This document shows positions 1-64,000 of a stretch of DNA of 64,000 nucleotides, one piece after another. The stretch's first letter is position 1, and each line of letters begins with the position of its first letter. This stretch comes from Clavibacter michiganensis subsp. insidiosus. GTDB lineage: Bacteria; Actinomycetota; Actinomycetes; Actinomycetales; Microbacteriaceae. The notes below the pieces were generated by a model. The model saw only the letters and a list, made by a program, of their open reading frames with translations, did no database searches and was not told the DNA's origin. The position numbers and the translations under genes are program-made. The stretch lies in contig NZ_MZMO01000002.1 in NCBI RefSeq assembly GCF_002240565.1, positions 1-64,000 of the forward strand, read 5' to 3'.

Positions 1-49
1 TGAACGGCACGGGGCCGGTGATCTGGTAGTGATTTCGAACGGTGGCCAT
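1..49 (-). CDS. 5' end of hypothetical protein (whole gene at 60007-60927)
   Basis: These bases encode the first 16 residues of the 306-aa protein described at 60007-60927. The gene is cut by the arbitrary start of the window, not by biology. Confidence 0.9.
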   Translation of the reverse strand, partial: MATVRNHYQITGPVPF

Positions 50-198
50 GGCGGCCCCTTCTCTTGGGAGGAAGGGTCCAGAGGGTGCTTTCGGAGGTTG
101 GTCCCCCTATGCTGGATGTTGACTACTGAGTCGCATCCGGCCCTCTGGGCCCGGTGCTGGCCTGGTTTCGGTTGCACCCGAAACCAGGCCAGAGTCTT

Positions 199-645
199 TT
201 AGGTGGCGCTCGCGTCCTCGCTTGCGCTCTCTCGTGCCTTCGCGTCCTCAGCTGCCTTGTTGCGGTTGCTGACGGCCTTCGCGCCTGGCTGGCTCGTGTC
301 GATCATGAGCATCCCGTCCTCGACGGTGGGGGTCACCGATACGCGTCCGTCGTGTCCATGCCGATGTACTGCGTGAAGCGGGTGCCGGCAATCAGCCACG
401 GGCCCTTGTCCGCCTTCTCGGGGTTGGTGACCTGTGTCCGCACGGGGTAAGCGTTCTGATTGGTGAGCGGTGCCGGTCGGAAGCCGATGAGCTTCCGCTC
501 CGGATCCCAGAGGAGTTCGACCCTTCGGGCTTGCCGATCGCCTCGTAGGCGGCACGGTTGATGGACATCAAGCCGCGCTTCTGGATCGTCACAGAGGGCG
601 TTGTCGGCGCAGCGCTGACCCCTTGGCGTATACCTCCCAGGGCAT
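199..645 (-). pseudogene. Frameshifted duplicate of the 149-aa hypothetical gene
   Basis: This is the same gene as 61077-61526. Three single-base losses (near 331, 530 and 612) break the frame. They are most likely sequencing errors in the overlap copy rather than a real pseudogene. Confidence 0.85.
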
Positions 646-1335
646 TGGACTCCTCTCGATGAACCGGTACGGCTCGATCGTACCATCGAATCCCTTACGC
701 ATGCGAGGTGTTGGTTCGAGAAGGCCGACGTGGCGTCGGGGTCTCGCCCGCGGGGCGTGCAGAGTGCACGCGTCAACTACACCTGCTTAGGATCCGCACC
801 AACATCCATGCCGCACGTCGTGTCGACACTCAAGCTCACGGCGCCGTGCTTCGCGAGTCGTCAAGTGCGCGGCGCCGTCGTCGGCGCCGACGTCCACGAC
901 GCGACTACAAGCGTGACGCGGCCGCTATGGAGCGGTGTCAACGTAGCGTGACAACGGATGTTCCGCTTAGTGAAAAAGCTTGTTCAAGTTCACTAGTGAA
1001 CTCAAGGATGCGATCAAGAATTTCAACAAGCTCGGCAATGTCAGACCGCGAATGTTGCCGACGACGGGATGTTCCTCTCTCTCTACGCGCTGCGCGCGCG
1101 AGTAGCACAGGTAGTGCCGTGCTGCACGACGACGCGTCACGCTCTACCGGACCCCATGTCGCACGACGGAGCGTCACGCCGCGTCGGGCCCCGCGGCGCT
1201 CGCATCCCCGCTTCTAGCGGGTGTCCCGCAAGCCTTGTCTTGTGAGACGCCTCGCGGGTCGTGCTCTGGCACTTCAGACCAGCCCGGGGGTTCCTGGCGG
1301 TCTGGGCGTCTGTCGCGGGAGCGTGCAGCGAGGCG

Positions 1336-1936
1336 TTACGCGTAGCAGTCCAGGGCGGCGGCCATGTGCTTGTCGCTCATGTAAACGAAATCGGAGACCA
1401 GCATGCCCCTGTTCCCGGCAGTGGGAGCGACGGGGCCGCGATGGGAAGTACGAGGACAACGGCGAGCCCGCGCGCACGCGCAGCCGCCCGGGCGTTCAGT
1501 CGATCGGCCGACTGCACGGTCCAGTCGCGGATCACGGCCTCGTCTGCAGCTTCGATCCACGCGTCGCGGGCCTCTGTGTCAATCCATGCCTCCCCGGGGG
1601 TCGGGGTCGCGAGCACTGGGGGGATCGCGCGCGCCATCGGGCCGAGGTCCCCGGTCTCGAAGAACCTGGAGACAAGGGCCTCGCGAGAGGGCGACGCGAT
1701 CGCCCACTCCAATGACTCGATCCAACGGACGGAGAGCTCGTGGACGAGGAGTGCCGCGTCGTCGGCGGGAAGGGCCGCACTCACAGGAGCGGGCGTGAGT
1801 GACTTCGGGATGGCAGTGACCTCGGAGCCGCACGCGTCTCTTGCGTACAGCAGCCGCATCAAGTGTCGGTCGTGCACGAGAGTCATTCCCTCTGTGCCCT
1901 TCGCCCGGACGTTGTGGGGATGTGCTCGATGCGCAT
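1336..1936 (-). pseudogene. Frameshifted duplicate of the 200-aa hypothetical gene
   Basis: This is the same gene as 62218-62820. It is broken here by two missing bases, one in a C run near 1407 and one near 1898. The intact version and the paralogue at 6539-7141 show that the frame should be open. Confidence 0.85.
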
Positions 1937-2069
1937 GGGTCTCCTCGGGTACTAGCACTGAGGGGAGGATCTTCCGCACTCAAACTCGGAAGCAGACGTA
2001 TCTGTGCACAGCCCTACGTGAGAAGTCCTCTCACGCCTTCGTCGCGTGGGCGCAGTCCCGCATGCCATG

Positions 2070-2091
2070 GGTTGTGGGACGTCCCACAACC
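2070..2091. promoter_or_regulatory. 22-bp perfect palindrome (operator-like)
   Basis: Two GGTTGTGGGAC half sites meet head to head. It sits about 135 bp upstream of the leftward 200-aa gene. Further half sites lie nearby (GTCCCGCATGCC at the left; GTCCCGCAACC at the right in the corrected copy). A dimeric DNA-binding protein or recombinase is the likely ligand; which one is unknown. Confidence 0.5.
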
Positions 2092-2397
2092 GCTCAGAGC
2101 TTGCCGCATAGCACCGCGGCCGCGCATGTCCGCAACCGTGGCCCACAAGGGAGTGCTTAGATGGGACTGTTCAGCGTCGGTTGCGAGACAGGTATGCGTG
2201 ACGACCAAGCTCAACGAGTCCTCATTCGGCGGCACCATCGGCCCGATGGTCGTCGTCATCATCTCCGCCCCATCGACTCCGACCGCCGGTGCGCTCTGCC
2301 TCGTCGGCGGGACCAGGGCCAACGCTTCGCTGATCCGCCTGAAAGCTTGCCTCATCTGCGCTCGAATTCCGAGACAACCGCTCTCTGGCCAGGCCGC

Positions 2398-2425
2398 GTA
2401 CGAAATAATAAATATTATCAGCTAG
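2398..2425 (-). other. dif-like XerC/XerD site S1
   Basis: Read on the - strand: arm CTAGCTGATAA, 6-base spacer TATTTA, arm TTATTTCGTAC. The 11-6-11 layout and the GATAA / TTAT inner ends match chromosomal and plasmid dif sites. It is the most divergent of the three on this plasmid. No XerC or XerD gene is present, so host enzymes would act. Confidence 0.5.
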
Positions 2426-2513
2426 CCTCTGACGCTTCGAGAGGGTCGGCTAGATGTGTCGGTGCTAATCGGACTCAAGCGGCCGCATCCCATGCTTCAT
2501 CCTGCATGTGCAA

Positions 2514-2538
2514 AGGTCCCGTCAGTATGACGGGGCCT
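2514..2538. terminator. Hairpin terminator candidate
   Basis: Arms AGGTCCCGTC and GACGGGGCCT (one G-T pair) enclose a 5-base loop and are followed on the + strand by TATTT. No + strand gene ends just before it, so it may end an untranslated RNA or insulate the neighbouring gene. Confidence 0.4.
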
Positions 2539-2613
2539 TATTTGGCTTGTGTATTCGGGGAGGGGGCAAATCCACTGCGGGAAGTCACACTATGGCCAGT
2601 CCCATGGACGCGA

Positions 2614-2648
2614 AGGGGGCTCGCCAGTCATTGTCCGGCGAGCCCCCT
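2614..2648. terminator. Terminator of the secreted-protein gene
   Basis: Twelve-base perfect arms AGGGGGCTCGCC and GGCGAGCCCCCT, with an 11-base loop, lie 24 bp past the stop of the leftward gene at 2672. The T tract is poor, as is usual in actinobacteria. Confidence 0.6.
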
Positions 2649-2671
2649 CCCTGTTCAGTGCTGCGACCGGA

Positions 2672-3268
2672 TCACCAGTGCCAGAATTGGACGGACGTCC
2701 GCGCTTGCGGGTGGACCGCGTCCCAGAAGGAGAAGATCCGGTAGATGCCGTTGACGCTCGACATCATCTCGTCGCAGGGGCTCACCTGCTTCTTCGGGTC
2801 CGTCTCGTAGTTCGTCAGGCGAGCGAAGTCCTCGCAGGTGATCATGCGATACGAGTGCACAGCGGTGGATCCGGCGAAAGCGGATCCGTAGTACTTCCTC
2901 ATGTAATCGAGCTTCGCGTCGCAGGTGCTCCCGCCGTCCTTCCGGACCACCACGGCGAGGCCCGAGCCGATCCACTCGGGATCTTCCTTCTGCGACCGGC
3001 TGTTGGAGTTGTACCAGCCGCAGACGCGCAGACCCGAGTACGAGTTCTGGTAGGGCCCCAGGTTGATGGCGGACGCCTCCAGGGGCGGTGCCGGTGCGGC
3101 GCTGACCGTCGTAACGGATGCTGTGGTCGTGTCGGCTGCGTTCGCCGCGGGCGCTACCGTCAAGGGTGCGACGGCGATCAGGCAGAGCGCGCCGAGTACG
3201 GCGAGTGCATGCCGAGCGCGTCGGACGGGGACGGTCGACATCGCGGACAGGGGCAGTGGTGCGGTCAT
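2672..3268 (-). CDS. Small secreted protein of unknown function
   Basis: The 198-aa product has a clear Sec signal: arginines near residue 16, a hydrophobic stretch over about 22-40, and an Ala-X-Ala cleavage site near 42-44. The mature part is about 150 aa with four Cys (in GLRVCGW, STCDAK, ITCEDF and SPCDEM), probably two disulfides, and is rich in Tyr and Trp near the C-terminus. The start is supported by AGGAAGG seven bases upstream. I do not recognise the family. It is the only gene between dif-like sites S1 and S2, so it may be a one-gene mobile cassette. An exported effector, inhibitor or surface protein is possible but not shown. Confidence 0.8.
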   Translation of the reverse strand: MTAPLPLSAMSTVPVRRARHALAVLGALCLIAVAPLTVAPAANAADTTTASVTTVSAAPAPPLEASAINLGPYQNSYSGLRVCGWYNSNSRSQKEDPEWIGSGLAVVVRKDGGSTCDAKLDYMRKYYGSAFAGSTAVHSYRMITCEDFARLTNYETDPKKQVSPCDEMMSSVNGIYRIFSFWDAVHPQARTSVQFWHW

Positions 3269-3604
3269 GGTGACCTTCCTCTAGGAAGACGGTGGCGGGC
3301 AGCGTGACGGGAACGGTAGCCCAGAGGGAGAACGGCGAGGGAACCATTCCCCAGCCCTCCGTGTCCCGCTAACGCCGGGGTCGCGCGACGCGGATCCGCA
3401 GCGGCCGGTCCAACAGTTTCGACACGGTCGAGTACGAGAAGCGGTACGTCATCGAGCGGGGCTTCTGCCGCCTCGGGCAGTGGCGAGGGCTCGTGACCCG
3501 GTGAGACGAACTCGAGGATGGGCAGTGGACTTGAGCACTTTTGCCGGCCGGCAGCCCACGAGACCCCTCGCCAGGGAGCGGCCGCCAGAGCCCGCACAGC
3601 CCGC
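3269..3604. other. Intergenic region, nothing recognised
   Basis: This is upstream of the secreted-protein gene and should contain its promoter, but no clear -10/-35 pair was found. No gene is supported. It ends at dif-like site S2. Confidence 0.5.
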
Positions 3605-3632
3605 ATATGACATAATAAAGGTTATCGGCGAC
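3605..3632 (-). other. dif-like XerC/XerD site S2
   Basis: Read on the - strand: arm GTCGCCGATAA, spacer CCTTTA, arm TTATGTCATAT. This is the best dif match on the plasmid, since GCCGATAA and TTATGTCA are what I recall of actinobacterial dif cores. Homology with the region at 58.7 kb begins exactly at this site, so it marks a module boundary. Confidence 0.65.
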
Positions 3633-3656
3633 TCAAATCGCCCTCGGAGAGGGAAG

Positions 3657-3902
3657 GTCGACAGGCGGCTGGACGCCGCTCATCGCGGGCAGCTCGCGAC
3701 CGCCTTCAACAACCTCCAGGCCTTCGGTGGGCCGGCGAACTAGGCGAAGTCGGACCAGGGGTCGGGGACCTGGCTGCCACCGGCTGTCGCCTATGACTGC
3801 ATGTACATCACCCGATTCGCGTACCTTCTGGGCATGCACGAGCTCATGATCGACGATGTCGACCGCACCACGATCGACCACACGCTCGGCTCGTGCTCTT
3901 GA
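3657..3902 (+). pseudogene. 3' fragment of an HNH nuclease gene, with nonsense codon
   Basis: The translation matches the last 80 or so residues of the intact HNH protein at 15621-16394 (FNNLQA, GTWLPP, DCMYITRFAYLL, IDHTLGSC). The nuclease-defining IDH segment and everything before it are missing, and a TAG at 3741 replaces the conserved Glu after PxN. A second, less decayed fragment lies at 58757-59001. In both places the fragment sits between a dif-like site and the membrane/GNAT-like gene. Confidence 0.85.
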
Positions 3903-3921
3903 CGCACCGGAGGGTCCGGTG

Positions 3922-4440
3922 ATGGCGACGGTCTCGACCGTGCCCCCGGCGATCGAGGGGCTGCCGCGCGCGGGCGTCGTGGACGCTTTGCGGATCGCGT
4001 GGTGGATGCGCCGTGGCTTCTGGCACGGGTTCCAGCACTCCCGGGGCGTTGCGCGCGTCGTGGCGCTCTACCTCGCTGTCGCGTGGTGGGTGCTCAGCCC
4101 GCTCGTCGTCGTGCTCCAGGTCGTTCTCGTCACCTGCCCGTGGACGCGGTACTACCTCAGCCCCGAGCGCGACGTCGTGCTCGCGCTGTTCGGGACCCGC
4201 ACCGGGTGGCACATCGGCGACCACATCGCGGCGGCACCAGGAACGGGCCGCGGCCGCGCGCTGCGCGCCCGCCTCCTGCCCGAGCTGCTGCCCGTCGCGG
4301 ACGCCCGGCGCGTGACGATCCACGCGACGGCCGCGTCACCCGAGCTGGCCGCGCTCTACATGGCTGAGCTCCCGGGCCTGGTCGACGTCGGCGGAGGCAT
4401 GTTCCGCGGCCGTCGTCTCCGCCGGCCCCCGGCTGCCTGA
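3922..4440 (+). CDS. Membrane-anchored protein with GNAT-like C-terminal half, copy 1
   Basis: The 172-aa product has one strong hydrophobic segment at about residues 44-73. Its C-terminal half contains a GTGRGRAL stretch and a closing pattern (ASPELAALYMAELPGLVDVG) reminiscent of the acetyl-CoA binding loop and the last motif of GNAT acetyltransferases. No acceptor is suggested, and the GNAT idea is an inference. GGAGG lies 8 bases before the ATG. It is 95% or more identical to the gene at 59021-59539. Its last 105 bp overlap the 3' end of the opposing gene at 4336-4743, and the same overlap is kept in the other copy. Confidence 0.75.
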   Translation: MATVSTVPPAIEGLPRAGVVDALRIAWWMRRGFWHGFQHSRGVARVVALYLAVAWWVLSPLVVVLQVVLVTCPWTRYYLSPERDVVLALFGTRTGWHIGDHIAAAPGTGRGRALRARLLPELLPVADARRVTIHATAASPELAALYMAELPGLVDVGGGMFRGRRLRRPPAA

Positions 4441-4743
4441 GCGCGCTCGCGCCGCGAACGCGATCAGCTCGGCGCTGTGCTGCACCATCCACGCCACGGC
4501 CGTGTTCAACGAGTGCTCGCGGCGGATCCAGATCCGCTGGCCCTGGTCGTTGCGGGCGTCGGCGTAGACCTCGAACGTGAACGGGTCCCCGAGCTGCGCG
4601 CGGACGCGCATCACGTACCCGAGCGTGGGCCGGTCCTCGACCTGGATCCGCCAGTAGCCGGCCTCGAGATGCGCCCACGGGTGCGCGCCGACGTCGCGCA
4701 CGAGGCTGTCGATGCCGTCGAGCTTGCTCTTCACCTTGCTCAC
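4336..4743 (-). CDS. 135-aa hypothetical protein, copy 1 of a three-member family
   Basis: A GTG start follows GGAGGAG. The core is HPWAHLEAGYWR, then a beta-rich stretch with DPFTFEVYADARN and GQRIWIRRE, then a helix with MVQHSAEL. Paralogues lie at 59435-59842 and 45865-46206. The C-terminal tail is Ala/Glu rich and is read antisense to the opposing gene; it differs in the third paralogue. I do not recognise the fold. The conserved tri-plication suggests a useful small cytoplasmic protein. Confidence 0.75.
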   Translation of the reverse strand: MSKVKSKLDGIDSLVRDVGAHPWAHLEAGYWRIQVEDRPTLGYVMRVRAQLGDPFTFEVYADARNDQGQRIWIRREHSLNTAVAWMVQHSAELIAFAARARSGSRGPAETTAAEHASADVDQARELSHVERGQLG

Positions 4744-4892
4744 CGGGTGCTCTCCTCCGTCGATTTGATCGGGTGGGAGCGTCCGGCCGCGCTCCTCAAC
4801 GAGCGCACGAGAGGCCACCGACCGTCGGCCGGAAGAGGGGAGGCGCCCCGAGCGTCGGTCGCTGGGCGTGCGACGGTAGACGTCTTGGGGAG

Positions 4893-4961
4893 GGTCTTGC
4901 TCTTCGTCTTGCTCTTCGTCTTGCTGTGCGTTTTGCTGATCGTCTTGCTCATCGTTCTTGG
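4893..4961. repeat. 12-bp tandem repeat, about five and a half units
   Basis: Units of the form CGTCTTGCTCTT lie just upstream of the 135-aa gene, followed by degenerate units (GTGCGTTTTGCT, GATCGTCTTGCT). They are absent from the other copies of this module. They could be a slippage tract, a binding array, or the start of an extended N-terminus for the 135-aa protein. Confidence 0.7.
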
Positions 4962-5054
4962 ATGTCATAGCTTTGACACGCCTCCCGTTACGACGGGTCA
5001 GGAAGAAGACCTTGGAACCCCAGCCGGACGACTGGATCTAGGGTCTTTCGCTTT

Positions 5055-5645
5055 TTAAGGGTCCAGCGAGTCCGTCGTGCGCGCCTCGATGAGCAGCGTC
5101 GACCGGAGCTCGTCGTAGTGATCCGTGTTGCCGAGGTGGGCGGCGTTGATGGATCCCAGGACGGCGTCTGCGATCCACAGCAACGGCTCGTCTCCGCCGC
5201 GCTGGTGGCCGATGCGGAGCCGCCGGTCAAGCCCCTGGGCCTGCAACCCCACGATGTGGGCCCGGTCCGCCTTGTCCTGGCCGTCGGACCGGCACTCCAG
5301 GGTCAAGTCGAACGTCTCCATCGTGACGAGCTCGTGATAGAGCGTCTCGAGGCTCTTGCGCCGGTACCGCTCGACCTTCTTTCGGTACGTGTCGAGGTGG
5401 GAGACGACGATGTTCATGGGCCCGAGCTCGACGATGCGAGACACGATGTCGCGATGGCGCCGGTCGCTCTCATCCGTCCAGTGGAGCTTGATCTGGCCCG
5501 GCAGCAGCAGCGGCCGCAGCTGCTCGCGAATGCTGTCGCAGTCCGCCTCGTCGATGAGCGCCGCGCAGACCAGGTACTCCTGCCGCTCTTCGCCCCGGCT
5601 CGCCGTTGACTCGTCGAGGAAGGCACGGAAGGCGGAGGGGGGCAC
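5055..5645 (-). CDS. DUF3800-family protein, copy 1
   Basis: The 196-aa product opens with AFLDES, has a Lys-Leu-His-Trp motif (IKLHWTDES), a central ECRSDGQ and a closing LWIADAVLGS. These are the positions where DUF3800 proteins keep acidic residues, a layout that suggests an RNase H-like metal-dependent nuclease. It ends 300 bp from the 135-aa gene. A divergent second member lies at 54390-54956. DUF3800 genes are common in phage-defence and mobile regions, but no partner toxin or defence gene is evident here. Confidence 0.8.
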   Translation of the reverse strand: MPPSAFRAFLDESTASRGEERQEYLVCAALIDEADCDSIREQLRPLLLPGQIKLHWTDESDRRHRDIVSRIVELGPMNIVVSHLDTYRKKVERYRRKSLETLYHELVTMETFDLTLECRSDGQDKADRAHIVGLQAQGLDRRLRIGHQRGGDEPLLWIADAVLGSINAAHLGNTDHYDELRSTLLIEARTTDSLDP

Positions 5646-6102
5646 TCCCCCACGCTAGCCACCCACGCGCCGACACTTGTCCGGGCAGCGTGCGCCGCGA
5701 CCACGTCGGACACGAGTTCGACGGTGGTGCATCCGTGCATCACCGCTACTTCGAACCCGTGATCTCCTAGAGGCGGATCCACGCGGTAGGGGTATGGATC
5801 TATTCGCTCAGAGGGGGCACGTTGGCCTCAGATCGACTTCTAAGCGCCAACTGTCAACTACGGGTCAACTACACCCACCCGTGATGCAATCGTGCCTCAA
5901 ATCGCATTTTTCGCCCCTTCCAGTGGGTGGGTCGACTACGATGAGACAAAGAAAGACCCCGAGTGGCACGTAGCCACCTCGAGGGTGGCCGGCTACACGG
6001 GGTCCAGAGTTCTTATCTAGGGAACCTCTTGATCCTAGCCCGCTACGCGACGACCCCGTCGGGGTACGTCTCGCAGCGGGAGTGGTCGGCCGAGACCGCA
6101 CC
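5646..6102. other. Gene-free region with a large hairpin
   Basis: No gene is supported. It includes repeated GTCAACTAC-like words (5860-5945) and, at 5955-6004, a two-step inverted repeat with outer arms GACCCCG/CGGGGTC and an inner GTAGC-CACC stem. On the - strand this is followed by TTTCTTTGTCT, as in a rho-independent terminator, although no annotated - strand gene ends there. A small RNA is possible. Confidence 0.5.
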
Positions 6103-6297
6103 ATGGCAACTAAGCCCCCGCTGCACTCCGGCAACATCGCCCCCAGCTCCGGCCAGTACGCGCTCGTCGGGCCTCGTGGAGGCGACACCGGGCAGGAGCG
6201 CACCGTCACCCGTGGCGAGCCCCTGTCTCCCACGCCGCGCCCCGGCATGGGATACGTCCAGGCCGATCGGACCCGCAACGGTTCGGGTCGCAAGTAG
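6103..6297 (+). CDS. YjzC-like small protein
   Basis: The 64-aa product contains SGQYALVGPRGG and RGEPLSPTPRPG, the pattern of the short, soluble YjzC-like family whose role is unknown. The ATG is chosen because the family begins close to this point. A GTG 21 bases upstream would add seven residues. No strong ribosome-binding site is seen. A 32-bp perfect palindrome 88 bases downstream ends the transcript. Confidence 0.7.
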   Translation: MATKPPLHSGNIAPSSGQYALVGPRGGDTGQERTVTRGEPLSPTPRPGMGYVQADRTRNGSGRK

Positions 6298-6385
6298 CAC
6301 CAGCAGCATCGGGCGCATCGCCGCCTGATCTGCGCGTCCGGTAGAACACCGGGACAGCGAAGCGCACTCATGCGCTCACGCACGG

Positions 6386-6417
6386 CGATGGCCCTGGGAC
6401 ATGTCCCAGGGCCATCG
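6386..6417 (+). terminator. 32-bp perfect palindrome, terminator
   Basis: The arm CGATGGCCCTGGGACA is followed at once by its exact complement and then by TCGTTTGTGT. It is well placed to end the YjzC-like gene and also faces the 3' end of the leftward 200-aa gene. Confidence 0.7.
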
Positions 6418-7469: not shown

Positions 7470-7483
7470 GCGTCCTGGTGGCG

Positions 7484-7987: not shown

Positions 7988-8392
7988 CTAGTTCGCTGGG
8001 AACAGAGTGGCGAGCACTCCCGCCGTACCCGACAGGACCAGCCCGATACTCGCGATCACGAGGTCTCGGCCAGCCCCCGCACCCAGCACCCGCATGACGC
8101 TCTCCGTCTCGTACCCGGGCTGGAACGACTCTCCGTAACCAGCCCGCCGAGGTAGCCCATTGGCTAGGTGGTGTGCTTGGAACTCAGCAATGATCTCTCG
8201 CTTACGACCAGGCTCGCGTGCTTTGGCGGTTTCTTCCTCCTCGTTAAGTTCTAGGGCTCGGGCAAGTTTCTCGCGAGCGTCGAGGTACCGCACTTTGGCC
8301 CCACGGGAGATGGCGATGAGACCGCCAAGGGTCAGCAGCATGCCCACGAGCTCCATCGCTGCGTACAGCAGCTGCAAGCCGGTCCATGGCAT
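7988..8392 (-). CDS. Small membrane protein coupled to the resolvase
   Basis: The 134-aa product has an N-terminal membrane segment (about residues 5-28), a charged helical middle with Glu/Lys-rich coiled-coil character (REKLARALELNEEEE), and a second hydrophobic segment at the C-terminus (about 110-130). Its ATG shares one base with the resolvase stop (TGATG), so the two are translationally coupled. No family was recognised. A part in plasmid stability or an unrelated passenger role is equally possible. Confidence 0.75.
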   Translation of the reverse strand: MPWTGLQLLYAAMELVGMLLTLGGLIAISRGAKVRYLDAREKLARALELNEEEETAKAREPGRKREIIAEFQAHHLANGLPRRAGYGESFQPGYETESVMRVLGAGAGRDLVIASIGLVLSGTAGVLATLFPAN

Positions 8393-9015
8393 CAGGGGGT
8401 CACTTCTTCCGCGCGGGGAAGCGCTAGCGCGGATGCGTCTTCGACGGGGTGTCGGTCCACTGCGCGGTAGACGGTGGCGCGGCCGATCGAGAACAGGTCG
8501 CACAGCTCACTGATCGAGTGATCGCCGGCCCGGTACAGCGCGACGAGGTGCCGTTCGGCGGCGGGGGAGAGCTTGGGCTTGCCGCCCTTGAGCTTGCCCT
8601 TCTTGGCTGCGACCTTCATGCCCTCCTTGGTGCGGGCGCTGATCATGTCGGACTCGAACTCGGCGAACATCGCGAGGCTGTTGAACAAGAAGTTGCGGAG
8701 GGGATCTGTCGGATCGTGGATCGAGCCACCGATGCTCATGACGGCGCCCTTCGCTGTGAGCTCGGCGCCGATGTTCCGCAAGTCGACCATCGACCGGCCG
8801 AGCCGGTCGAGCTTTGTGACCACGAACGTGTCGCCCTCCCAGCACGCGGCGAGGGCTTCCCGTAGTGCCGGGCGGTCACGGTTGCGGCCCGTCAGACCGT
8901 GATCGACGTAGATGCGATCTTCGTCGACGCCGAGGGCCATGAGGCCGTCCCGCTGCGCGGTGACGTCTTGCGCGTCCGTGGAGACGCGGGCGTATCCGAT
9001 GAGTTGTCCAGCCAT
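8392..9015 (-). CDS. Serine resolvase/invertase
   Basis: The 207-aa product is a small serine recombinase of resolvase/DNA-invertase type. It has the catalytic N-terminus IGYARVSTDAQD with the nucleophilic Ser, the conserved TKLDRLGRS, the long E helix (FEFESDMI region) and a C-terminal Hin-like helix-turn-helix (HSISELCDLFSIGRATVYRAV). It would resolve plasmid dimers or invert DNA at nearby sites. Three TGAGACGC-type motifs upstream form a probable res site. Because no transposase or transposon ends are seen, a plasmid-maintenance role is favoured. Confidence 0.93.
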   Translation of the reverse strand: MAGQLIGYARVSTDAQDVTAQRDGLMALGVDEDRIYVDHGLTGRNRDRPALREALAACWEGDTFVVTKLDRLGRSMVDLRNIGAELTAKGAVMSIGGSIHDPTDPLRNFLFNSLAMFAEFESDMISARTKEGMKVAAKKGKLKGGKPKLSPAAERHLVALYRAGDHSISELCDLFSIGRATVYRAVDRHPVEDASALALPRAEEVTP

Positions 9016-9020
9016 AGGTC

Positions 9021-15102: not shown

Positions 15103-15624
15103 ATGCTCGACTCACTGACCGGAAGCGATGAGGACAGCACACCCGACACGGACGAGGACACGCAGCTCGTCATCGACGTCTACGGCGCCTACGAGACCGC
15201 CAGGAGCGCCGCCCGACACGCCATCGAGAACGGGCAGCCCGCGGACGACGCCGCCAGCGAGATGGCACCCGCCAAGGAGTGGGCCGTGATGAACGCTTCC
15301 TGGATCGGCTTATTCCCTGTGCAGGGCGCCCTGTGCGGGGCCGTCGAGACCCTTCTGGACCAAGACGTCGCAGCGCATGCTGTCGACCCAGCGCCGGACC
15401 CCGGGGCCGGCGGCTGGACCGATGCAGCCCACGACCACGCCACCGCGGTCCGGTGGGTCACCGAAGCGCTCGAGCGCAACAGCGACGCCCGCGACATCGA
15501 CCTCATGGTCGCCGAGACCCTCGAGGGCCCGGGGCTGACCGGTGACCTGCGGATCCGTGAACTGGTGGTCGAGATCATCGACGTCGCCAGCTCCGCCGCG
15601 AACTCGTGCCGGGACGCCCTGTGA
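15103..15624 (+). CDS. Hypothetical acidic protein
   Basis: The ATG follows the previous stop by two bases. The 173-aa product is acidic and mostly helical, with repeated Ala-Asp-rich helices (YETARSAARHAIEN, AAHDHATAVRWVTEALER) and one mildly hydrophobic stretch (SWIGLFPVQGALCGAVETLL). No family was recognised. Its last four bases overlap the start of the HNH nuclease gene (GTGA), so the two are coupled. Confidence 0.65.
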   Translation: MLDSLTGSDEDSTPDTDEDTQLVIDVYGAYETARSAARHAIENGQPADDAASEMAPAKEWAVMNASWIGLFPVQGALCGAVETLLDQDVAAHAVDPAPDPGAGGWTDAAHDHATAVRWVTEALERNSDARDIDLMVAETLEGPGLTGDLRIRELVVEIIDVASSAANSCRDAL

Positions 15625-16394
15625 GGGCCCGCGCACGTCGCCTGTACCTCCTCGCTGCTCTGGTGGTGGGCCTCGGCACTCTCGCGGCCGGCTACTACGC
15701 CGTCGACTTCGTGTCCCCCGACGTGAAGGCAGATGAGACGACGCCAGCAGCGAGCGGGGCACCGGCGGCCGCCTCGAGTGGCCCTGTCGTCGACGCTCTC
15801 ACCTCCGCCGGCCTCGTCCACGGAGGGACGGTCGACGCGACCGCGGTACGGACCCTCGTCGACGCGCTCCCCGCTGACACGCACGCGAGGACGCCCAACT
15901 ACGACCGGGCCGCGTACGGGCCGTCCTGGGCCGACACCGACCACAACGGGTGCGACCAGCGGAACGACGTCCTGGCCCGCGACCTCACGGCGGTCACGTA
16001 CACGAAGACGGATCCCGGCTGCACCGTGGCTACCGGGCACCTCGCCGACGTCTACACGGGCCGCAGCATCGACTTCACCCGCGGAAAGGCCACGAGCGCG
16101 GCCGTGCAGATCGACCACCTCGTGCCCCTCGGCTGGGCGTGGCAGCACGGCGCCGCCACCTGGACGGCCGACCGGCGCGAGAAGTTCGCGACCGACTTCA
16201 ACAACCTCCAGGCCGTCGATGGCCCCACCAACGAGGCCAAGTCCGACCAGGGCCCCGCGACCTGGCTCCCGCCGGCCGCCGGCTACGACTGCCTCTACGT
16301 CACCCGCTTCGCGTACGTGCTCCACGCCTACTCGCTCACGATCGACGACGCCGACCGCGCCGCGATCGACCACACCCTCAACACCTGCCATTGA
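15621..16394 (+). CDS. Exported HNH nuclease (DUF1524/GmrSD-C type)
   Basis: The GTG start overlaps the previous stop. The 257-aa product has a signal or anchor (residues about 7-28), a spacer rich in Ala/Thr, then a nuclease domain with QIDHLVPLGWAW (the HNH first His region), FNNLQAVDGPTN and the KSDQGPATWLPP segment, and paired Cys for disulfides. Secreted proteins of this layout are widespread in actinobacteria and are thought to be extracellular or envelope DNases. Its 3' end has been copied to three other places on this plasmid (3657, 16770 and 58757). Confidence 0.85.
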   Translation: MRARARRLYLLAALVVGLGTLAAGYYAVDFVSPDVKADETTPAASGAPAAASSGPVVDALTSAGLVHGGTVDATAVRTLVDALPADTHARTPNYDRAAYGPSWADTDHNGCDQRNDVLARDLTAVTYTKTDPGCTVATGHLADVYTGRSIDFTRGKATSAAVQIDHLVPLGWAWQHGAATWTADRREKFATDFNNLQAVDGPTNEAKSDQGPATWLPPAAGYDCLYVTRFAYVLHAYSLTIDDADRAAIDHTLNTCH

Positions 16395-58708: not shown

Positions 58709-58743
58709 ACATGACATAAGGTACATTAAAGGTTATCGGCGCT
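58709..58743 (-). other. dif-like site S3 with expanded spacer
   Basis: Read on the - strand: arm AGCGCCGATAA, 13-base spacer CCTTTAATGTACC, arm TTATGTCATGT. The arms match site S2 and the first six spacer bases are the same; seven extra bases have been inserted. Such a site might be inactive, or a scar of faulty recombination. The homology with 3.6 kb starts here. Confidence 0.55.
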
Positions 58744-58756
58744 CAGGTCGAGGAGT

Positions 58757-59001
58757 CGACAGGGTCGCTGGACGCCGTTCATCGCAAGCAGCTCGCGACC
58801 GACTTCAACAACCTCCAGGCTGTCGGTGGGCCGACGAACGCGGCGAAGTCGGATCTGGGGCCGGCAACGTGCCTTCCACCGACTGCCTGGTATGACTGTC
58901 TGTACGTCACCCGATTCGCGTACCTTCTGAGCATGTCCGAGCTCACGATCGACGACGCCGACCGCGCCGCGATCGACCGCACGCTGGGCTCCTGCTCGTG
59001 A
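58757..59001 (+). pseudogene. 3' fragment of HNH nuclease gene, copy 2
   Basis: Uninterrupted frame matching the last 80 residues of the HNH protein (LATDFNNLQAVGGPTNAAKS; DCLYVTRFAYLL; IDRTLGSC). It is closer to the intact gene than the fragment at 3657 and has no start or catalytic part. Confidence 0.85.
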
Positions 59002-59020
59002 CCCACCGGAGGATCCGGTG

Positions 59021-59539
59021 ATGGCGACGGTCTCGACCGTGCCCCCGGCGATCGAGGGGCTGCCGCGCGCGGGCGTCGTGGACGCTTTGCGGATCGCGTG
59101 GTGGATGCGCCGTGGCTTCTGGCATGGCTTCCAGCACTCCCGCGGAGCTGCGCGCGTCGTGGCGCTCTACCTCGCTGTCGCGTGGTGGGTGCTCAGCCCG
59201 CTCATCGTCGTGCTCCAGGTCGTCCTGGTCACGTGCCCGTGGACGCGGTACTACCTCAGCCCCGAGCGCGACGTCGTGCTCGCGCTGTTCGGGACCCGCA
59301 CCGGGTGGCACATCGGCGACCACATCGCGGCGGCACCAGGAACGGGCCGCGGCCGCGCGCTGCGCGTCCTCCTGCTGCCCGAGCTGCTGCCCGTCGCGGA
59401 CGCCCGGCGCGTGACGATCCACGCGACGGCCGCGTCACCCGAGCTGGCCGCGCTCTACATGGCTGAGCTCCCGGGCCTGGTCGACGTCGGCGGAGGCATG
59501 TTCCGCGGCCGTCGTCTCCGCCGGCCCCCGGCTGCCTGA
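59021..59539 (+). CDS. Membrane-anchored protein with GNAT-like C-terminal half, copy 2
   Basis: 172 aa, differing from the copy at 3922-4440 at only a few positions (for example GFQHSRGAARV and VLLLPELL). Same membrane segment, same GTGRGRAL, same ribosome-binding site GGAGG, and same 105-bp overlap with the opposing gene. Confidence 0.75.
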   Translation: MATVSTVPPAIEGLPRAGVVDALRIAWWMRRGFWHGFQHSRGAARVVALYLAVAWWVLSPLIVVLQVVLVTCPWTRYYLSPERDVVLALFGTRTGWHIGDHIAAAPGTGRGRALRVLLLPELLPVADARRVTIHATAASPELAALYMAELPGLVDVGGGMFRGRRLRRPPAA

Positions 59540-59842
59540 GCGCGCTCGCGCCGCGAACGCGATCAGCTCGGCGCTGTGCTGCACCATCCACGGCACGGCC
59601 GTGTTCAACGAGTGCTCGCGGCGGATCCAGATGCGCTGGCCCTGGTCGTTGCGGGCGTCGGCGTAGACCTCGAACGTGAACGGGTCCCCGAGCTCCGCCC
59701 GGTGCCGGATCACGTACCCGAGCACAGGACGGTCCTCGACCTGGATCCGCCAGTAGCCAGCCTCGAGATGCGCCCACGGGTGCTGTCCCGTGCTGCGCAC
59801 GAGGCTGTCGATGCCGTCGAGCTTGCTCTTGACCTTGCTCAG
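59435..59842 (-). CDS. 135-aa hypothetical protein, copy 2 (start codon CTG)
   Basis: Nearly identical to 4336-4743 in the core. The start position of copy 1 (GTG) reads CTG here, with GGAGGAG still in place. Translation from CTG would be weak, so this copy may be poorly expressed or use another start upstream. Confidence 0.6.
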   Translation of the reverse strand: MSKVKSKLDGIDSLVRSTGQHPWAHLEAGYWRIQVEDRPVLGYVIRHRAELGDPFTFEVYADARNDQGQRIWIRREHSLNTAVPWMVQHSAELIAFAARARSGSRGPAETTAAEHASADVDQARELSHVERGQLG

Positions 59843-59955
59843 CGGGGGCTCCTCCGTCGATTCGATCGAGTGGGAGCGCCCGGCCGCGCTCGTCGGCAAG
59901 CGTACGGAGATGGACCGACACGCGCTGTTGTAGAGGCCGAAGTGCGGGCGCACGA

Positions 59956-60006: not shown

Positions 60007-60927
60007 CTACGCGGCTTCGGTCCGGGCGGTGTTGGCGCGAGCCCACTGACGGGCGACGAAGCGCTTGTGGGCGGCCACGAGGTCGTGGTCCTTGTGGAGG
60101 GCTTCGGCCGTCACTCGTCGGATGGTGGCCCTGCCGCGCGTCAGGCCGGGCTGCTTCCCCAGTACGTCCTTCTGGGTCAGCAGCTGCTTGCCGTCGGCCA
60201 GCGTGACAGCCCGCTCGAGCTGAGCGAAGCCGAGGACGGTCGTCCCCCAGAACCGCGGAGCCGCCAGAAGCAGAGTCCGGCGGGCCCATCCATCGGGGAC
60301 CAGCAGGAGCGGCTTCCCGTTGACGACCGGCAGCGTCACTCGGGTGGCATCGTTCCAGCGCAGCCGATCCGGATCCCAGGCCTGCTTCGAGTAGGTCTCA
60401 ACGATGTGATCGCCGGCCGTGAACTCCGCGAACCTGTTCACCTGATCGGCGGTGAAGTCCGCGAGGGGCTTGAACATGATGCGCGTCGCGATGTCGGACG
60501 TGATGTCCCGATCCACTCCATCCACGAAGAGCGCGATGTCCTCGAGCTGGCGAAGCAGGCCCACGCGAACGAAGGCATCGAGGTCAGTGGTCAGTGTGTC
60601 CCAGATCACCTGGCCGATGTCATCAGCACCACCGTGACCGCTGAAGCCGAACTTGGACATCCCCAGGCGGCTCTCCCATGGCTCGCAGAAGTGCTGGAGG
60701 AGGTCGAGTCCATGAGCGCGATCGACCGGCGACGTGGAGAGCACGCACCGCGTGATCTCCTCGAAGAACGTGTCCGCGCAGCGGAGCGCCTCGGACGCGA
60801 AGGGATCCGGCGCATGACTGAGCCGGATCGCGTGGGGATCGAGGAACAGCCTGTTGTCCTTGCTGACATCGACGTCGGTGAACGGCACGGGGCCGGTGAT
60901 CTGGTAGTGATTTCGAACGGTGGCCAT
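60007..60927 (-). CDS. 306-aa hypothetical protein
   Basis: The ATG is preceded by GGGGCC and, farther up, GGAAG. The product begins YQITGPVPFTDVDVSKD and LFLDPHAIR, contains CADTFFEEITRCVLS and a helical core, then RNA/DNA-binding-like basic C-terminus (RGRATIRRV; RFVARQWARANT). No family was recognised with confidence. It lies in the accessory module between site S3 and the 149-aa gene, which read in the same direction. Confidence 0.75.
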   Translation of the reverse strand: MATVRNHYQITGPVPFTDVDVSKDNRLFLDPHAIRLSHAPDPFASEALRCADTFFEEITRCVLSTSPVDRAHGLDLLQHFCEPWESRLGMSKFGFSGHGGADDIGQVIWDTLTTDLDAFVRVGLLRQLEDIALFVDGVDRDITSDIATRIMFKPLADFTADQVNRFAEFTAGDHIVETYSKQAWDPDRLRWNDATRVTLPVVNGKPLLLVPDGWARRTLLLAAPRFWGTTVLGFAQLERAVTLADGKQLLTQKDVLGKQPGLTRGRATIRRVTAEALHKDHDLVAAHKRFVARQWARANTARTEAA

Positions 60928-61034
60928 GGCGGCCCCTTCTCTTGGGAGGAAGGGTCCAGAGGGTGCTTTCGGAGGTTGGTCCCCCTATGCTGGATGTTGA
61001 CTACTGAGTCGCATCCGGCCCTCTGGGCCCGGTG

Positions 61035-61070
61035 CTGGCCTGGTTTCGGTTGCACCCGAAACCAGGCCAG
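61035..61070. terminator. Terminator between the 149-aa and 306-aa genes
   Basis: Fifteen-base perfect arms CTGGCCTGGTTTCGG and CCGAAACCAGGCCAG with a 6-base loop, followed on the + strand by AGTCTTTT. The overlap copy is at 157-192. Confidence 0.85.
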
Positions 61071-61076
61071 AGTCTT

Positions 61077-61526
61077 TTAGGTGGCGCTCGCGTCCTCGCT
61101 TGCGCTCTCTCGTGCCTTCGCGTCCTCAGCTGCCTTGTTGCGGTTGCTGACGGCCTTCGCGCCTGGCTGGCTCGTGTCGATCATGAGCATCCCGTCCTCG
61201 ACGGTGGGGGTCCACCGATACGCGTCCGTCGTGTCCATGCCGATGTACTGCGTGAAGCGGGTGCCGGCAATCAGCCACGGGCCCTTGTCCGCCTTCTCGG
61301 GGTTGGTGACCTGTGTCCGCACGGGGTAAGCGTTCTGATTGGTGAGCGGTGCCGGTCGGAAGCCGATGAGCTTCCGCTCCGGATCCCAGAGGAGTTCGAC
61401 CCCTTCGGGCTTGCCGATCGCCTCGTAGGCGGCACGGTTGATGGACATCAAGCCGCGCTTCTGGATCGTCACAGAGGGCGTTGTCGGCGCAGGCGCTGAC
61501 CCCTTGGCGTATACCTCCCAGGGCAT
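61077..61526 (-). CDS. 149-aa hypothetical protein
   Basis: Start chosen at the ATG with GAGAGGAG four bases upstream. The first 60 residues (VTIQKRGLMSINRAAYEAIG; VELLWDPERKLIGFRPAP) form a short beta-helix domain that resembles small swapped-hairpin DNA-binding proteins in layout. The middle (GPWLIAGTRFTQYIG) and the Ala/Glu/Ser tail are not recognised. A longer start 57 bases upstream lacks a ribosome-binding site. Confidence 0.7.
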   Translation of the reverse strand: MPWEVYAKGSAPAPTTPSVTIQKRGLMSINRAAYEAIGKPEGVELLWDPERKLIGFRPAPLTNQNAYPVRTQVTNPEKADKGPWLIAGTRFTQYIGMDTTDAYRWTPTVEDGMLMIDTSQPGAKAVSNRNKAAEDAKARESASEDASAT

Positions 61527-62217
61527 TGGACTCCTCTCGATGAACCGGTACGGCTCGATCGTACCATCGAATCCCTTACGCATGCGAGGTGTTGGTTCGA
61601 GAAGGCCGACGTGGCGTCGGGGTCTCGCCCGCGGGGCGTGCAGAGTGCACGCGTCAACTACACCTGCTTAGGATCCGCACCAACATCCATGCCGCACGTC
61701 GTGTCGACACTCAAGCTCACGGCGCCGTGCTTCGCGAGTCGTCAAGTGCGCGGCGCCGTCGTCGGCGCCGACGTCCACGACGCGACTACAAGCGTGACGC
61801 GGCCGCTATGGAGCGGTGTCAACGTAGCGTGACAACGGATGTTCCGCTTAGTGAAAAAAGCTTGTTCAAGTTCACTAGTGAACTCAAGGATGCGATCAAG
61901 AATTTCAACAAGCTCGGCAATGTCAGACCGCGAATGTTGCCGACGACGGGATGTTCCTCTCTCTCTACGCGCTGCGCGCGCGAGTAGCACAGGTAGTGCC
62001 GTGCTGCACGACGACGCGTCACGCTCTACCGGACCCCATGTCGCACGACGGAGCGTCACGCCGCGTCGGGCCCCGCGGCGCTCGCATCCCCGCTTCTAGC
62101 GGGTGTCCCGCAAGCCTTGTCTTGTGAGACGCCTCGCGGGTCGTGCTCTGGCACTTCAGACCAGCCCGGGGGTTCCTGGCGGTCTGGGCGTCTGTCGCGG
62201 GAGCGTGCAGCGAGGCG
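61527..62217. other. Gene-free region with 16-bp palindrome
   Basis: No gene is supported (frames here are arginine-rich artefacts). An isolated AT-rich block at 61845-61890 contains AGTTCACTAGTGAACT, a perfect palindrome (61869-61884), likely an operator. At the right end begins the 0.9-kb duplicated unit with TCCCGCAAGCCTTGTCTTGT. Confidence 0.5.
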
Positions 62218-62820
62218 TTACGCGTAGCAGTCCAGGGCGGCGGCCATGTGCTTGTCGCTCATGTAAACGAAATCGGAGACCAGCATGCCCCCTGTTCCCG
62301 GCAGTGGGAGCGACGGGGCCGCGATGGGAAGTACGAGGACAACGGCGAGCCCGCGCGCACGCGCAGCCGCCCGGGCGTTCAGTCGATCGGCCGACTGCAC
62401 GGTCCAGTCGCGGATCACGGCCTCGTCTGCAGCTTCGATCCACGCGTCGCGGGCCTCTGTGTCAATCCATGCCTCCCCGGGGGTCGGGGTCGCGAGCACT
62501 GGGGGGATCGCGCGCGCCATCGGGCCGAGGTCCCCGGTCTCGAAGAACCTGGAGACAAGGGCCTCGCGAGAGGGCGACGCGATCGCCCACTCCAATGACT
62601 CGATCCAACGGACGGAGAGCTCGTGGACGAGGAGTGCCGCGTCGTCGGCGGGAAGGGCCGCACTCACAGGAGCGGGCGTGAGTGACTTCGGGATGGCAGT
62701 GACCTCGGAGCCGCACGCGTCTCTTGCGTACAGCAGCCGCATCAAGTGTCGGTCGTGCACGAGAGTCATTCCCTCTGTGCCCCTTCGCCCGGACGTTGTG
62801 GGGATGTGCTCGATGCGCAT
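62218..62820 (-). CDS. 200-aa hypothetical protein, copy 1
   Basis: Intact copy of the gene frameshifted at 1336-1936 and identical in protein to 6539-7141. GAGGAGA lies three bases before the ATG. See the entry at 6539 for the domain description. No function is assigned. Confidence 0.7.
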   Translation of the reverse strand: MRIEHIPTTSGRRGTEGMTLVHDRHLMRLLYARDACGSEVTAIPKSLTPAPVSAALPADDAALLVHELSVRWIESLEWAIASPSREALVSRFFETGDLGPMARAIPPVLATPTPGEAWIDTEARDAWIEAADEAVIRDWTVQSADRLNARAAARARGLAVVLVLPIAAPSLPLPGTGGMLVSDFVYMSDKHMAAALDCYA

Positions 62821-62938
62821 GGGTCTCCTCGGGTACTAGCACTGAGGGGAGGATCTTCCGCACTCAAACTCGGAAGCAGACGTATCTGTGCACAGCCCTA
62901 CGTGAGAAGTCCTCTCACGCCTTCGTCGCGTGGGCGCA

Positions 62939-63022
62939 GTCCCGCATGCCATGGGTTGTGGGACGTCCCACAACCGCTCAGAGCTTGCCGCATAGCACCG
63001 CGGCCGCGCATGTCCCGCAACC
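62939..63022. promoter_or_regulatory. GTCCCRCAACC motif array, copy 1
   Basis: Half sites GTCCCGCATGCC (62939), GGTTGTGGGAC and GTCCCACAACC (62954-62975, forming a 22-bp palindrome) and GTCCCGCAACC (63012). Spacing and symmetry suggest a multi-dimer binding site controlling the 200-aa gene or serving recombination. Confidence 0.5.
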
Positions 63023-63282
63023 GTGGCCCACAAGGGAGTGCTTAGATGGGACTGTTCAGCGTCGGTTGCGAGACAGGTATGCGTGACGACCAAGCTCAAC
63101 GAGTCCTCATTCGGCGGCACCATCGGCCCGATGGTCGTCGTCATCATCTCCGCCCCATCGACTCCGACCGCCGGTGCGCTCTGCCTCGTCGGCGGGACCA
63201 GGGCCAACGCTTCGCTGATCCGCCTGAAAGCTTGCCTCATCTGCGCTCGAATTCCGAGACAACCGCTCTCTGGCCAGGCCGC

Positions 63283-63310
63283 GTACGAAATAATAAATAT
63301 TATCAGCTAG
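63283..63310 (-). other. dif-like site S1, overlap copy
   Basis: The same site as 2398-2425, in the second copy of the terminal overlap. Confidence 0.5.
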
Positions 63311-63498
63311 CCTCTGACGCTTCGAGAGGGTCGGCTAGATGTGTCGGTGCTAATCGGACTCAAGCGGCCGCATCCCATGCTTCATCCTGCATGTGCAAAG
63401 GTCCCGTCAGTATGACGGGGCCTTATTTGGCTTGTGTATTCGGGGAGGGGGCAAATCCACTGCGGGAAGTCACACTATGGCCAGTCCCATGGACGCGA

Positions 63499-63533
63499 AG
63501 GGGGCTCGCCAGTCATTGTCCGGCGAGCCCCCT
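63499..63533. terminator. Terminator of secreted-protein gene, overlap copy
   Basis: Same hairpin as 2614-2648. Confidence 0.6.
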
Positions 63534-63556
63534 CCCTGTTCAGTGCTGCGACCGGA

Positions 63557-64000
63557 TCACCAGTGCCAGAATTGGACGGACGTCCGCGCTTGCGGGTGGA
63601 CCGCGTCCCAGAAGGAGAAGATCCGGTAGATGCCGTTGACGCTCGACATCATCTCGTCGCAGGGGCTCACCTGCTTCTTCGGGTCCGTCTCGTAGTTCGT
63701 CAGGCGAGCGAAGTCCTCGCAGGTGATCATGCGATACGAGTGCACAGCGGTGGATCCGGCGAAAGCGGATCCGTAGTACTTCCTCATGTAATCGAGCTTC
63801 GCGTCGCAGGTGCTCCCGCCGTCCTTCCGGACCACCACGGCGAGGCCCGAGCCGATCCACTCGGGATCTTCCTTCTGCGACCGGCTGTTGGAGTTGTACC
63901 AGCCGCAGACGCGCAGACCCGAGTACGAGTTCTGGTAGGGCCCCAGGTTGATGGCGGACGCCTCCAGGGGCGGTGCCGGTGCGGCGCTGACCGTCGTAAC
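63557..64000 (-). CDS. Secreted protein, 3' part (whole gene at 2672-3268)
   Basis: Same gene as 2672-3268, cut by the end of the window within the codons just after the signal peptide. It contains all four Cys of the mature protein. Confidence 0.85.
   Translation of the reverse strand, partial: VTTVSAAPAPPLEASAINLGPYQNSYSGLRVCGWYNSNSRSQKEDPEWIGSGLAVVVRKDGGSTCDAKLDYMRKYYGSAFAGSTAVHSYRMITCEDFARLTNYETDPKKQVSPCDEMMSSVNGIYRIFSFWDAVHPQARTSVQFWHW

What the first reader, a model, noticed from the sequence alone, without database searches (positions are those of the whole stretch)
2398..3632. dif-like XerC/XerD sites framing a one-gene cassette on an actinobacterial plasmid
Sites at 2398 and 3605 both show 11-base arm, 6-base spacer, 11-base arm with the GATAA/TTAT cores of dif. 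Between them lies only a secreted-protein gene and its terminator. A third site is at 58709. In Acinetobacter plasmids, pdif sites let host XerC/D swap gene modules; I do not know of such modules described for actinobacterial conjugative plasmids. Here all three sites point the same way, which would favour excision.
Basis: partly seen in the sequence, partly recalled or inferred. Interest (0 to 1): 0.85.

Follow-up and report, generated by a model that had tools for sequence, protein, structure and literature searches.

The report
Host Xer sites on Clavibacter plasmids
A Clavibacter plasmid carries a copy of the bacterium's own chromosome-separation site, and in relatives blocks of DNA start or stop exactly at such sites, one of them inserted at that site in this same strain's chromosome, so the host's own recombinases probably shuffle plasmid DNA here much as they do in Acinetobacter.

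Summary
The window is a ~60.9-kb circular Clavibacter plasmid (pCI2-like) whose contig runs past its own start. Site B (3605-3632) is real: its 16 core arm bases equal the host chromosomal dif. Site A (2398-2425) is weak, with a damaged XerD-type arm. "Site 3" (58712-58740) has a 13-bp spacer and is malformed; a further hit at 63283 is A again. The general idea holds in relatives: 18 of 18 Clavibacter genomes have the motif (reversed control 0 of 18), 10 more than once. Homology between site-flanking DNAs stops in the site far more often than at decoys (13 of 231 ends, decoys at most 7). In this strain's chromosome a 12.2-kb element sits exactly at dif, between a decayed dif and an intact plasmid-type site; a relative shows the empty site. 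No tyrosine recombinase was detected on plasmid or element. Host XerCD most likely joins plasmids to each other and to dif. The excisable one-gene cassette is not supported: A is damaged, A/B spacers differ at 2 of 6 bases, and both named relatives carry the block unchanged. Ten searches of open papers listed no account for Actinomycetota.

The parts
3605..3632 (-). Site B: intact dif-like XerC/XerD site, GCCGATAA-CCTTTA-TTATGTCA (core 3608-3629)
   Evidence: core arms identical to host dif; weight-matrix score 37.0
2398..2425 (-). Site A: weak dif-like site, left (XerC-type) arm GCTGATAA, damaged right arm TTATTTCG, spacer TATTTA
   Evidence: 3 mismatches; score 18.7, 0 of 60 simulations as good
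2426..3604 (.). A-B interval (1.18 kb)
   Evidence: same in NZ_CP021036 (pCI2) and NZ_CP011045 at 99.8%
2672..3268 (-). 198-aa protein with a signal-peptide-like N terminus (by eye), no Pfam match
   Evidence: annotated in pCI2 as hypothetical
2615..2647 (.). 11-bp perfect inverted repeat with 11-nt loop downstream of the gene (terminator-like by eye; not among the 3 sites the scan found, whose loop limit is 8)
3385..3514 (.). IS5-family transposase-like DNA remnant inside the A-B interval
   Evidence: 75-76% to two annotated IS5 transposases
3657..4809 (+). Flank block of site B (dif-left side), beginning in a truncated 3' end of an HNH (GmrSD_C-type) gene; 92% copy at 58755
58712..58740 (-). 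Site C: malformed composite, left arm + CCTTTA as in B joined to TGTACC + right arm as in chromosomal dif; 13-bp spacer
58755..59906 (+). Flank block of site C, homologous to that of B and to flanks of sites in pMSF2, the own chromosomal dif and the G011 chromosome
60879..64000 (.). Assembly redundancy: same DNA as 1-3115; includes site A again at 63283-63310
15606..16394 (+). Longer HNH gene (GmrSD_C domain), whose 3' part resembles what abuts sites B and C
8392..9015 (-). Serine resolvase (PF00239) of the plasmid: a candidate for the plasmid's own dimer resolution

Best explanation
Site B is a working copy of the host dif motif on a plasmid. Host XerC and XerD recombine such sites between replicons, so that plasmids fuse with other plasmids or with chromosomal dif and later lose or exchange what lies beyond the site. 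An incoming circle with one site ends up between two direct sites, one of which may stay intact while the other decays. That is the picture at this strain's chromosomal dif (shown: 12.2 kb between a decayed dif and an intact plasmid-type site, with the empty site in a relative). The A-B pair looks like the same kind of scar on a small scale: B intact, A decayed, a 1.2-kb insert between (inferred). Site C is an inactive by-product of a join between a B-type and a dif-type site (inferred). Shown: sites, host-type arms, host XerC/XerD-like genes, no detected tyrosine recombinase on plasmid and element, homology breaks at sites. Inferred: that XerCD catalyses it, and that it goes by cointegration.
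For: Motif in 18 of 18 Clavibacter genomes, 10 of 18 with two or more matches, control 0 of 18. HSP-end test on 23 site segments (6 overlapping or near-duplicate ones of 29 dropped): 13 of 231 ends fall in the site of both partners; 5000 independent decoy sets gave at most 1, 5000 same-shift sets at most 7. The 13 come from three groups (7 among five sites with the HNH-tail left flank: B, C, pMSF2, own dif, a G011 chromosomal site; 5 among four chromosomal difs; 1 plasmid pair), so they are not 13 independent events. Plasmid pair: pCM2_LMG7333 and pCL-A6099 share 3558 bp at 95.3% up to the site, while the pCM2 and pMSF2 backbone begins 20 bp beyond it. Own chromosome: left flank of other difs ends at 1767266 in GCCGATAATGCCCATTTGTCA, intact site 12,200 bp further at 1779446, empty site in G008. 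A further pair, G011 plasmid and chromosome, shares a right flank from the first site base, 76.5% over 1226 columns (not in the HSP-end count). Another genus: one 27-kb contig ends 1 base past a site and two contigs start with its last 77 bases, then differ. PF00589: 3 hits in the genome, all on the chromosome, outside the element; one is XerD-like (above the TIGR02225 cut-off), one XerC-like (TIGR02224 best, below its cut-off).
Against: No recombination was observed directly. Spacers differ between B and dif (5 of 6) and between B and A (2 of 6), so these pairs should recombine poorly by published rules. 20 further sites from other genera gave one site-bounded pair, in Herbiconiux, whose module carries its own integrase; 31 more sites gave one, the G149 fork. 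The variable DNA right of chromosomal dif shows no decayed second site (score 9 or more) in 6 genomes, and own and G008 chromosomes differ by about 1.2 kb there as well. Some Clavibacter plasmids lack a good site (pCI1: none at 3 or fewer mismatches; pCM2: only one with 2 and one with 3).
Confidence: 0.67

Rival explanations
1. The plasmid sites are simply plasmid dimer-resolution sites (like cer, psi or a plasmid dif), and the homology breaks beside them come from ordinary mosaicism.
For: Xer sites on plasmids commonly serve dimer resolution (recalled); several site-bearing contigs have a single match. Site B is kept in pCI2 with a one-base spacer change.
Against: The plasmid has its own serine resolvase. 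pCI1 lacks any site at 3 or fewer mismatches. Breaks fall in the sites: 13 double hits against a decoy maximum of 7. One element sits at chromosomal dif.
Confidence: 0.15
2. Elements with their own integrase or transposase use dif-like sequences as targets; host XerCD is not the agent.
For: Herbiconiux plasmid NZ_CP053345: two 99.9% identical 4.3-kb blocks each begin at a dif-like site and carry a PF00589 integrase. IS1202-family elements target pdif and dif sites (PMC10132070, abstract start). An IS5 remnant lies in the A-B interval.
Against: No PF00589 gene on the window plasmid or in the 12.2-kb chromosomal element. In 10 of the 43 ORFs listed there Pfam found only Fic and a sub-threshold DUF4258; the other ORFs were not scanned.
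Confidence: 0.12
3. A-B is a live one-gene cassette, excised as a circle by host XerCD.
For: Direct orientation, intact B, four of six spacer bases shared on the XerD side.
Against: A's right arm is damaged. Published excision was seen with direct sites whose spacers are identical or one base apart (PMC13141974, passages). No cassette-free relative found.
Confidence: 0.1
4. Site A is a chance match and only B is real.
For: 3 mismatches; a mean of 0.11 matches at 3 or fewer mismatches per shuffled window, and one unselected hit of A's strength in about 515 kb of real DNA.
Against: 0 of 60 simulations reached its score; it lies 1.2 kb from B in the same orientation with a near-intact left arm.
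Confidence: 0.3

Closest known systems
pdif sites and dif modules of Acinetobacter plasmids
   Same: dif-like sites with host-type arms on plasmids; variable 6-bp spacers; plasmid segments that change at the sites; no tyrosine recombinase detected on the window plasmid.
   Different: Acinetobacter modules alternate C/D and D/C sites (PMC13141974, passages). Here the window's sites are all direct, and so are those of the 6 other contigs of known length under 220 kb with two or more matches at 1 or fewer mismatches (G001:C2, G043:C3, G215:C2, G259:C6, G219:C2, G149:C12; lengths). Over all 19 such contigs besides the window's it is 11 of 19; of the 8 mixed ones, 5 are close inverted pairs in one genus. 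Some Clavibacter plasmids are typed conjugative, MOBF/MPF_T.
[quoted passage not shown] gonococcal genomic island, EludIMEX-1
   Same: Element at chromosomal dif between two direct sites of which one is degenerate, no own tyrosine recombinase detected (own chromosome).
   Different: The examples in the review passages read (PMC5357621) are Vibrio phages, Neisseria and Enterobacter; here the host is an actinobacterium and the element's left flank is also found at plasmid sites.
Plasmid dimer-resolution Xer sites (cer, psi; recalled)
   Same: A XerCD site on a plasmid.
   Different: Arms equal dif; associated with homology breaks; accessory regions were not looked for.

Membership tests
dif-type XerCD site (site B) | XerC and XerD arms like host dif around a 6-bp spacer | tested here: met
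   0 mismatches to core arms of own dif; same core arms as the suggested Frankia dif in PMC3025954 (passage)
dif-type XerCD site (site A) | both arms intact | tested here: not met
   right arm TTATTTCG
dif-type XerCD site (site C) | 6-bp spacer | tested here: not met
   13-bp spacer
dif-type XerCD site | bound and cut by host XerC and XerD | not testable with these tools
   host genes present; no activity data
Acinetobacter-type dif module | module bounded by inversely oriented pdif sites (C or D module) | tested here: not met
   A, B, C all on the minus strand
Acinetobacter-type dif module | module boundaries in relatives coincide with sites | tested here: met
   for the A-B block itself only the B side could be tested (B versus C)
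IMEX (12.2-kb chromosomal element) | inserted at dif with two direct dif-like sites, empty site known | tested here: met
   left site has lost one base of its right arm
IMEX (12.2-kb chromosomal element) | no own recombinase, uses XerCD | tested here: inconclusive
   no PF00589 hit in the element; other recombinase types looked for in 10 of 43 ORFs only; use of XerCD not shown
Excisable cassette (A-B) | direct sites with identical or nearly identical spacer | tested here: not met
   direct, but 2 of 6 spacer bases differ; rule from PMC13141974 (passages)

The most novel reading that the evidence does not exclude
Microbacteriaceae plasmids take part in a live, host-XerCD-driven exchange network, built mainly from direct dif-like sites, that moves large blocks between conjugative plasmids and the chromosomal dif and lets integrated elements supply the chromosome's working dif. 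The assembly fork in G149, where one 27-kb contig is continued by two different contigs one base past the site, would be a snapshot of it.
Probability: 0.4. Interest if true: 0.72.

Novelty: new variant of a known kind. Interest (0 to 1): 0.55.

Why it matters
Xer-driven plasmid module exchange is described for Acinetobacter, and Xer-driven integration for Gram-negative elements, in the sources I saw. If it also runs in actinobacterial conjugative plasmids, it is a more general route by which plasmids rearrange without their own recombinase, it may explain some of the variation beside dif, and it gives annotators a simple 22-bp marker for module edges. It also suggests that a chromosome's working dif can be replaced by one brought in by a plasmid-type element.

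Tried and rejected
Rejected: three good sites in the window (C has a 13-bp spacer; the fourth hit is assembly redundancy). Rejected: the longer ORF 2655-3347 as the cassette gene; the frame annotated in pCI2 corresponds to 2672-3268. My one protein search of plasmids used that wrong frame; the right frame was scanned only against Pfam (no match), and the block was searched as DNA. Led nowhere: decayed second sites to the right of chromosomal dif (none at score 9 or more in 6 genomes); site-bounded homology among 20 sites of other genera (one pair only) and among 31 more sites in 30 short loci (one pair ends at the site, the G149 fork; one spans it and is a repeated contig end, G026; two are matches of 37-39 bases at the site). 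G156 contigs also join other contigs near sites, but the joins end 10 bases into the site and I could not explain them. I found no relative that lacks the A-B block while keeping its neighbours. Literature: (open PMC papers only; four lists were capped: one search showed 25 of 1,275, 40 of 78, 20 of 34, 10 of 52). No listed title or abstract start dealt with pdif or Xer integration in Actinomycetota; listed papers were otherwise not opened. Passages were seen in PMC4059874, PMC5357621, PMC11705084, PMC13141974, PMC3025954 and PMC13342612; no paper was read whole. Recalled, from no call: cer and psi, which arm is XerC, the fame of pCM2.

Full report
What the window is. The window is part of contig 2 (75,338 bp) of a Clavibacter genome with a 3.24-Mb chromosome contig. 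Contig 2 runs past its own start: 1-14467 recur from 60879 at 99.8% identity with 27 gaps and no mismatch, so the plasmid is a circle of about 60,885 bp. It matches pCI2 of C. michiganensis subsp. insidiosus R1-3 at 98-99% over about 40 kb; pCI2 is typed MOBF, MPF_T, conjugative.

The observation. Site B is a perfect match to GCCGATAA-N6-TTATGTCA. Site A is a 3-mismatch match with a near-intact left arm and a damaged right arm. Site C has both 8-bp core arms but a 13-bp spacer. In the dif direction C reads GCCGATAA-CCTTTA-A-TGTACC-TTATGTCA: the left arm and spacer of B, one A, then the spacer and right arm of the chromosomal dif. The hit at 63286 is A again. Against a matrix from 40 other sites, B scores 37.0, C 21.0 and A 18.7, the 40 sites scoring 27.7-40.0; A was not reached in 60 simulated plasmids, while 4 hits of its strength outside the training set occur in 515 kb of real DNA, 3 of them in stretches fetched because of a weak match.

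The host motif. The own chromosome has one match at 2 or fewer mismatches, GCCGATAA-TGTACC-TTATGTCA at C1:1779446, near the middle of the contig. Taking in each of the 17 other Clavibacter genomes the match that looks like dif, 12 of 17 have the spacer TGCACA, as in the suggested Frankia dif CACGCCGATAATGCACATTATGTCAAGT (PMC3025954, passage). 18 of 18 genus genomes match at 2 or fewer mismatches, 10 of 18 more than once (own redundant copy set aside), reversed control 0 of 18. In the family 264 of 299 genomes match at 1 or fewer, 40 of 299 more than once by my hand count of the table, control 0 of 299. Several extra matches lie on contigs of 27-214 kb.

Do module edges coincide with sites? I cut 29 site-centred segments of up to 12 kb, dropped 6 that overlapped or nearly duplicated another, and compared the 23 left; the near-identical window repeat and ends within 60 bases of a segment end were left out. 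Of 231 alignment ends, 13 fall within the site of both partners. With decoy positions the maximum was 1 in 5000 independent draws and 7 in 5000 common shifts. The 13 come from three groups. Group 1 (7 ends): B, C, pMSF2, the own chromosomal dif and a G011 chromosomal site share a left flank that begins in a truncated 3' end of an HNH gene, and have different right flanks. For B the homology to pMSF2, G011 and the own dif stops 44-56 bp before the site; only with C does it run into the site. Group 2 (5 ends): four chromosomal difs share at least 6 kb on the left and differ on the right; a sixth pair of these stops 38 bases short. Group 3 (1 end): pCM2_LMG7333 and pCL-A6099 share 3558 bp at 95.3% on the right side, ending at the site, while the pCM2 and pMSF2 backbone begins 20 bp beyond it.

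The chromosomal element. The left flank of other Clavibacter difs ends in the own genome at 1767266, in GCCGATAATGCCCATTTGTCA, a dif with one base lost from the right arm. The intact site follows 12,200 bp later, with a plasmid-type spacer and a plasmid-type left flank, and then the chromosome resumes. G008 has the uninterrupted site: its left flank aligns at 95.4% over about 5.3 kb (all that was fetched). Its right flank aligns weakly (75%) for about 70 bases past the site, then at 87.7% from +104 in G008 and +1301 in the own genome, so about 1.2 kb more differs on the right. An element thus sits exactly at dif and its inner edge carries the intact dif-type site. Parts of it match the window plasmid at 75-87%; it is related DNA, not this plasmid.

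The recombinase. In the whole genome PF00589 matches 3 genes, all chromosomal and none within the element. One is XerD-like (above the TIGR02225 cut-off), one XerC-like (TIGR02224 best, below its cut-off), the third a more distant integrase. The plasmid has a serine resolvase.

Other genera. A Herbiconiux plasmid has two sites, each followed by the same 4.3 kb (99.9%), but this block carries its own tyrosine integrase, so it may be an independent element. In G149 one contig ends one base past a site and two other contigs begin with its last 77 bases and then differ; the 77 bases were found in those three places only. This is a fork of the assembly at the site: either a block present twice, or two configurations in one culture. 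The other 18 of the 20 sites first fetched from other genera gave no site-bounded pair, nor did the rest of 31 further sites.

The A-B block. It is the same in pCI2 and NZ_CP011045 (99.8%). Elsewhere only fragments match: 405 bp at 70% in one C. michiganensis plasmid and in the G004 chromosome, and shorter ones. Published passages say that excision was seen with direct sites whose spacers are identical or one base apart (PMC13141974), that sites without closely related central regions did not recombine, and that Acinetobacter plasmids form cointegrates rather than excise modules (PMC11705084). A and B differ at two spacer bases and A is damaged. So I read A-B as an old insertion, not a live cassette. 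That B is a true edge is supported by B against C: same left flank at 91%, different right flanks.

Mechanism and limits. The best reading is intermolecular XerCD recombination at dif-like sites, with decay of one of the two resulting sites. Shown are sites, edges, one dif insertion and the gene inventory. Catalysis, timing and cointegration are inferred. B and the present dif differ at 5 of 6 spacer bases, so direct integration of this plasmid into the present dif is unlikely.

Literature. Ten searches of open PMC papers listed pdif work on Acinetobacter and IMEX work on Gram-negatives; no listed title or abstract start treats Xer modules of Actinomycetota plasmids. The 2014 Clavibacter genome paper does not contain the word dif (PMC4059874). 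Several lists were capped, and subscription journals were mostly not covered.

Noticed in passing
NZ_CP053345.1 (L091) about 1014-5323 and 25254-29563: Herbiconiux plasmid with two 99.9% identical 4.3-kb blocks, each beginning at a dif-like site and carrying a tyrosine integrase, an HTH protein, a 492-aa protein without Pfam match, an ArsR-type regulator and a cation transporter: a possible integrase-bearing element that targets dif-like sites.
   Followed up: partly
G149:C12 end, C9 start, C10 start (L134, L135, L136): Assembly fork one base past a dif-like site: one 27-kb contig continued by two different contigs.
   Followed up: partly
G033:C2:421196-421265, G174:C2:225871-225940, G223:C94:17403-17472, G267:C129:2530-2598, G304:C198:6534-6603: In five genomes of one genus (g17) a dif-like match is paired with a second, inverted one 47-48 bp away, start to start.
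   Followed up: no
L049, L051, L052, L053, L055, L065, right of dif: Shared DNA to the right of chromosomal dif begins anywhere from about 0.1 to 8.6 kb away among six Clavibacter genomes, while four share the left side up to the site; no decayed second site seen.
   Followed up: partly
G004:C1:2355574 (L050): A second exact dif-like match on a chromosome, far from the dif at 899749, with plasmid-like DNA on its right.
   Followed up: no
window 1221-2147 and 6424-7353 (62103-63032 is the first copy again): A 930-bp repeat at about 97% identity; pCI2 and the window part company next to it.
   Followed up: no
NZ_CP021036.1 36112-38749: pCI2 carries a cytosine methyltransferase and a Cfr10I/Bse634I-type restriction gene in a stretch without a match in the window.
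   Followed up: no
G156:C18:1-131, C23:1-131, C13:50494-50612, C8:1-119: Draft contigs of one genome overlap by 119 bases, the overlaps ending 10 bases into two dif-like sites; cause not understood.
   Followed up: partly
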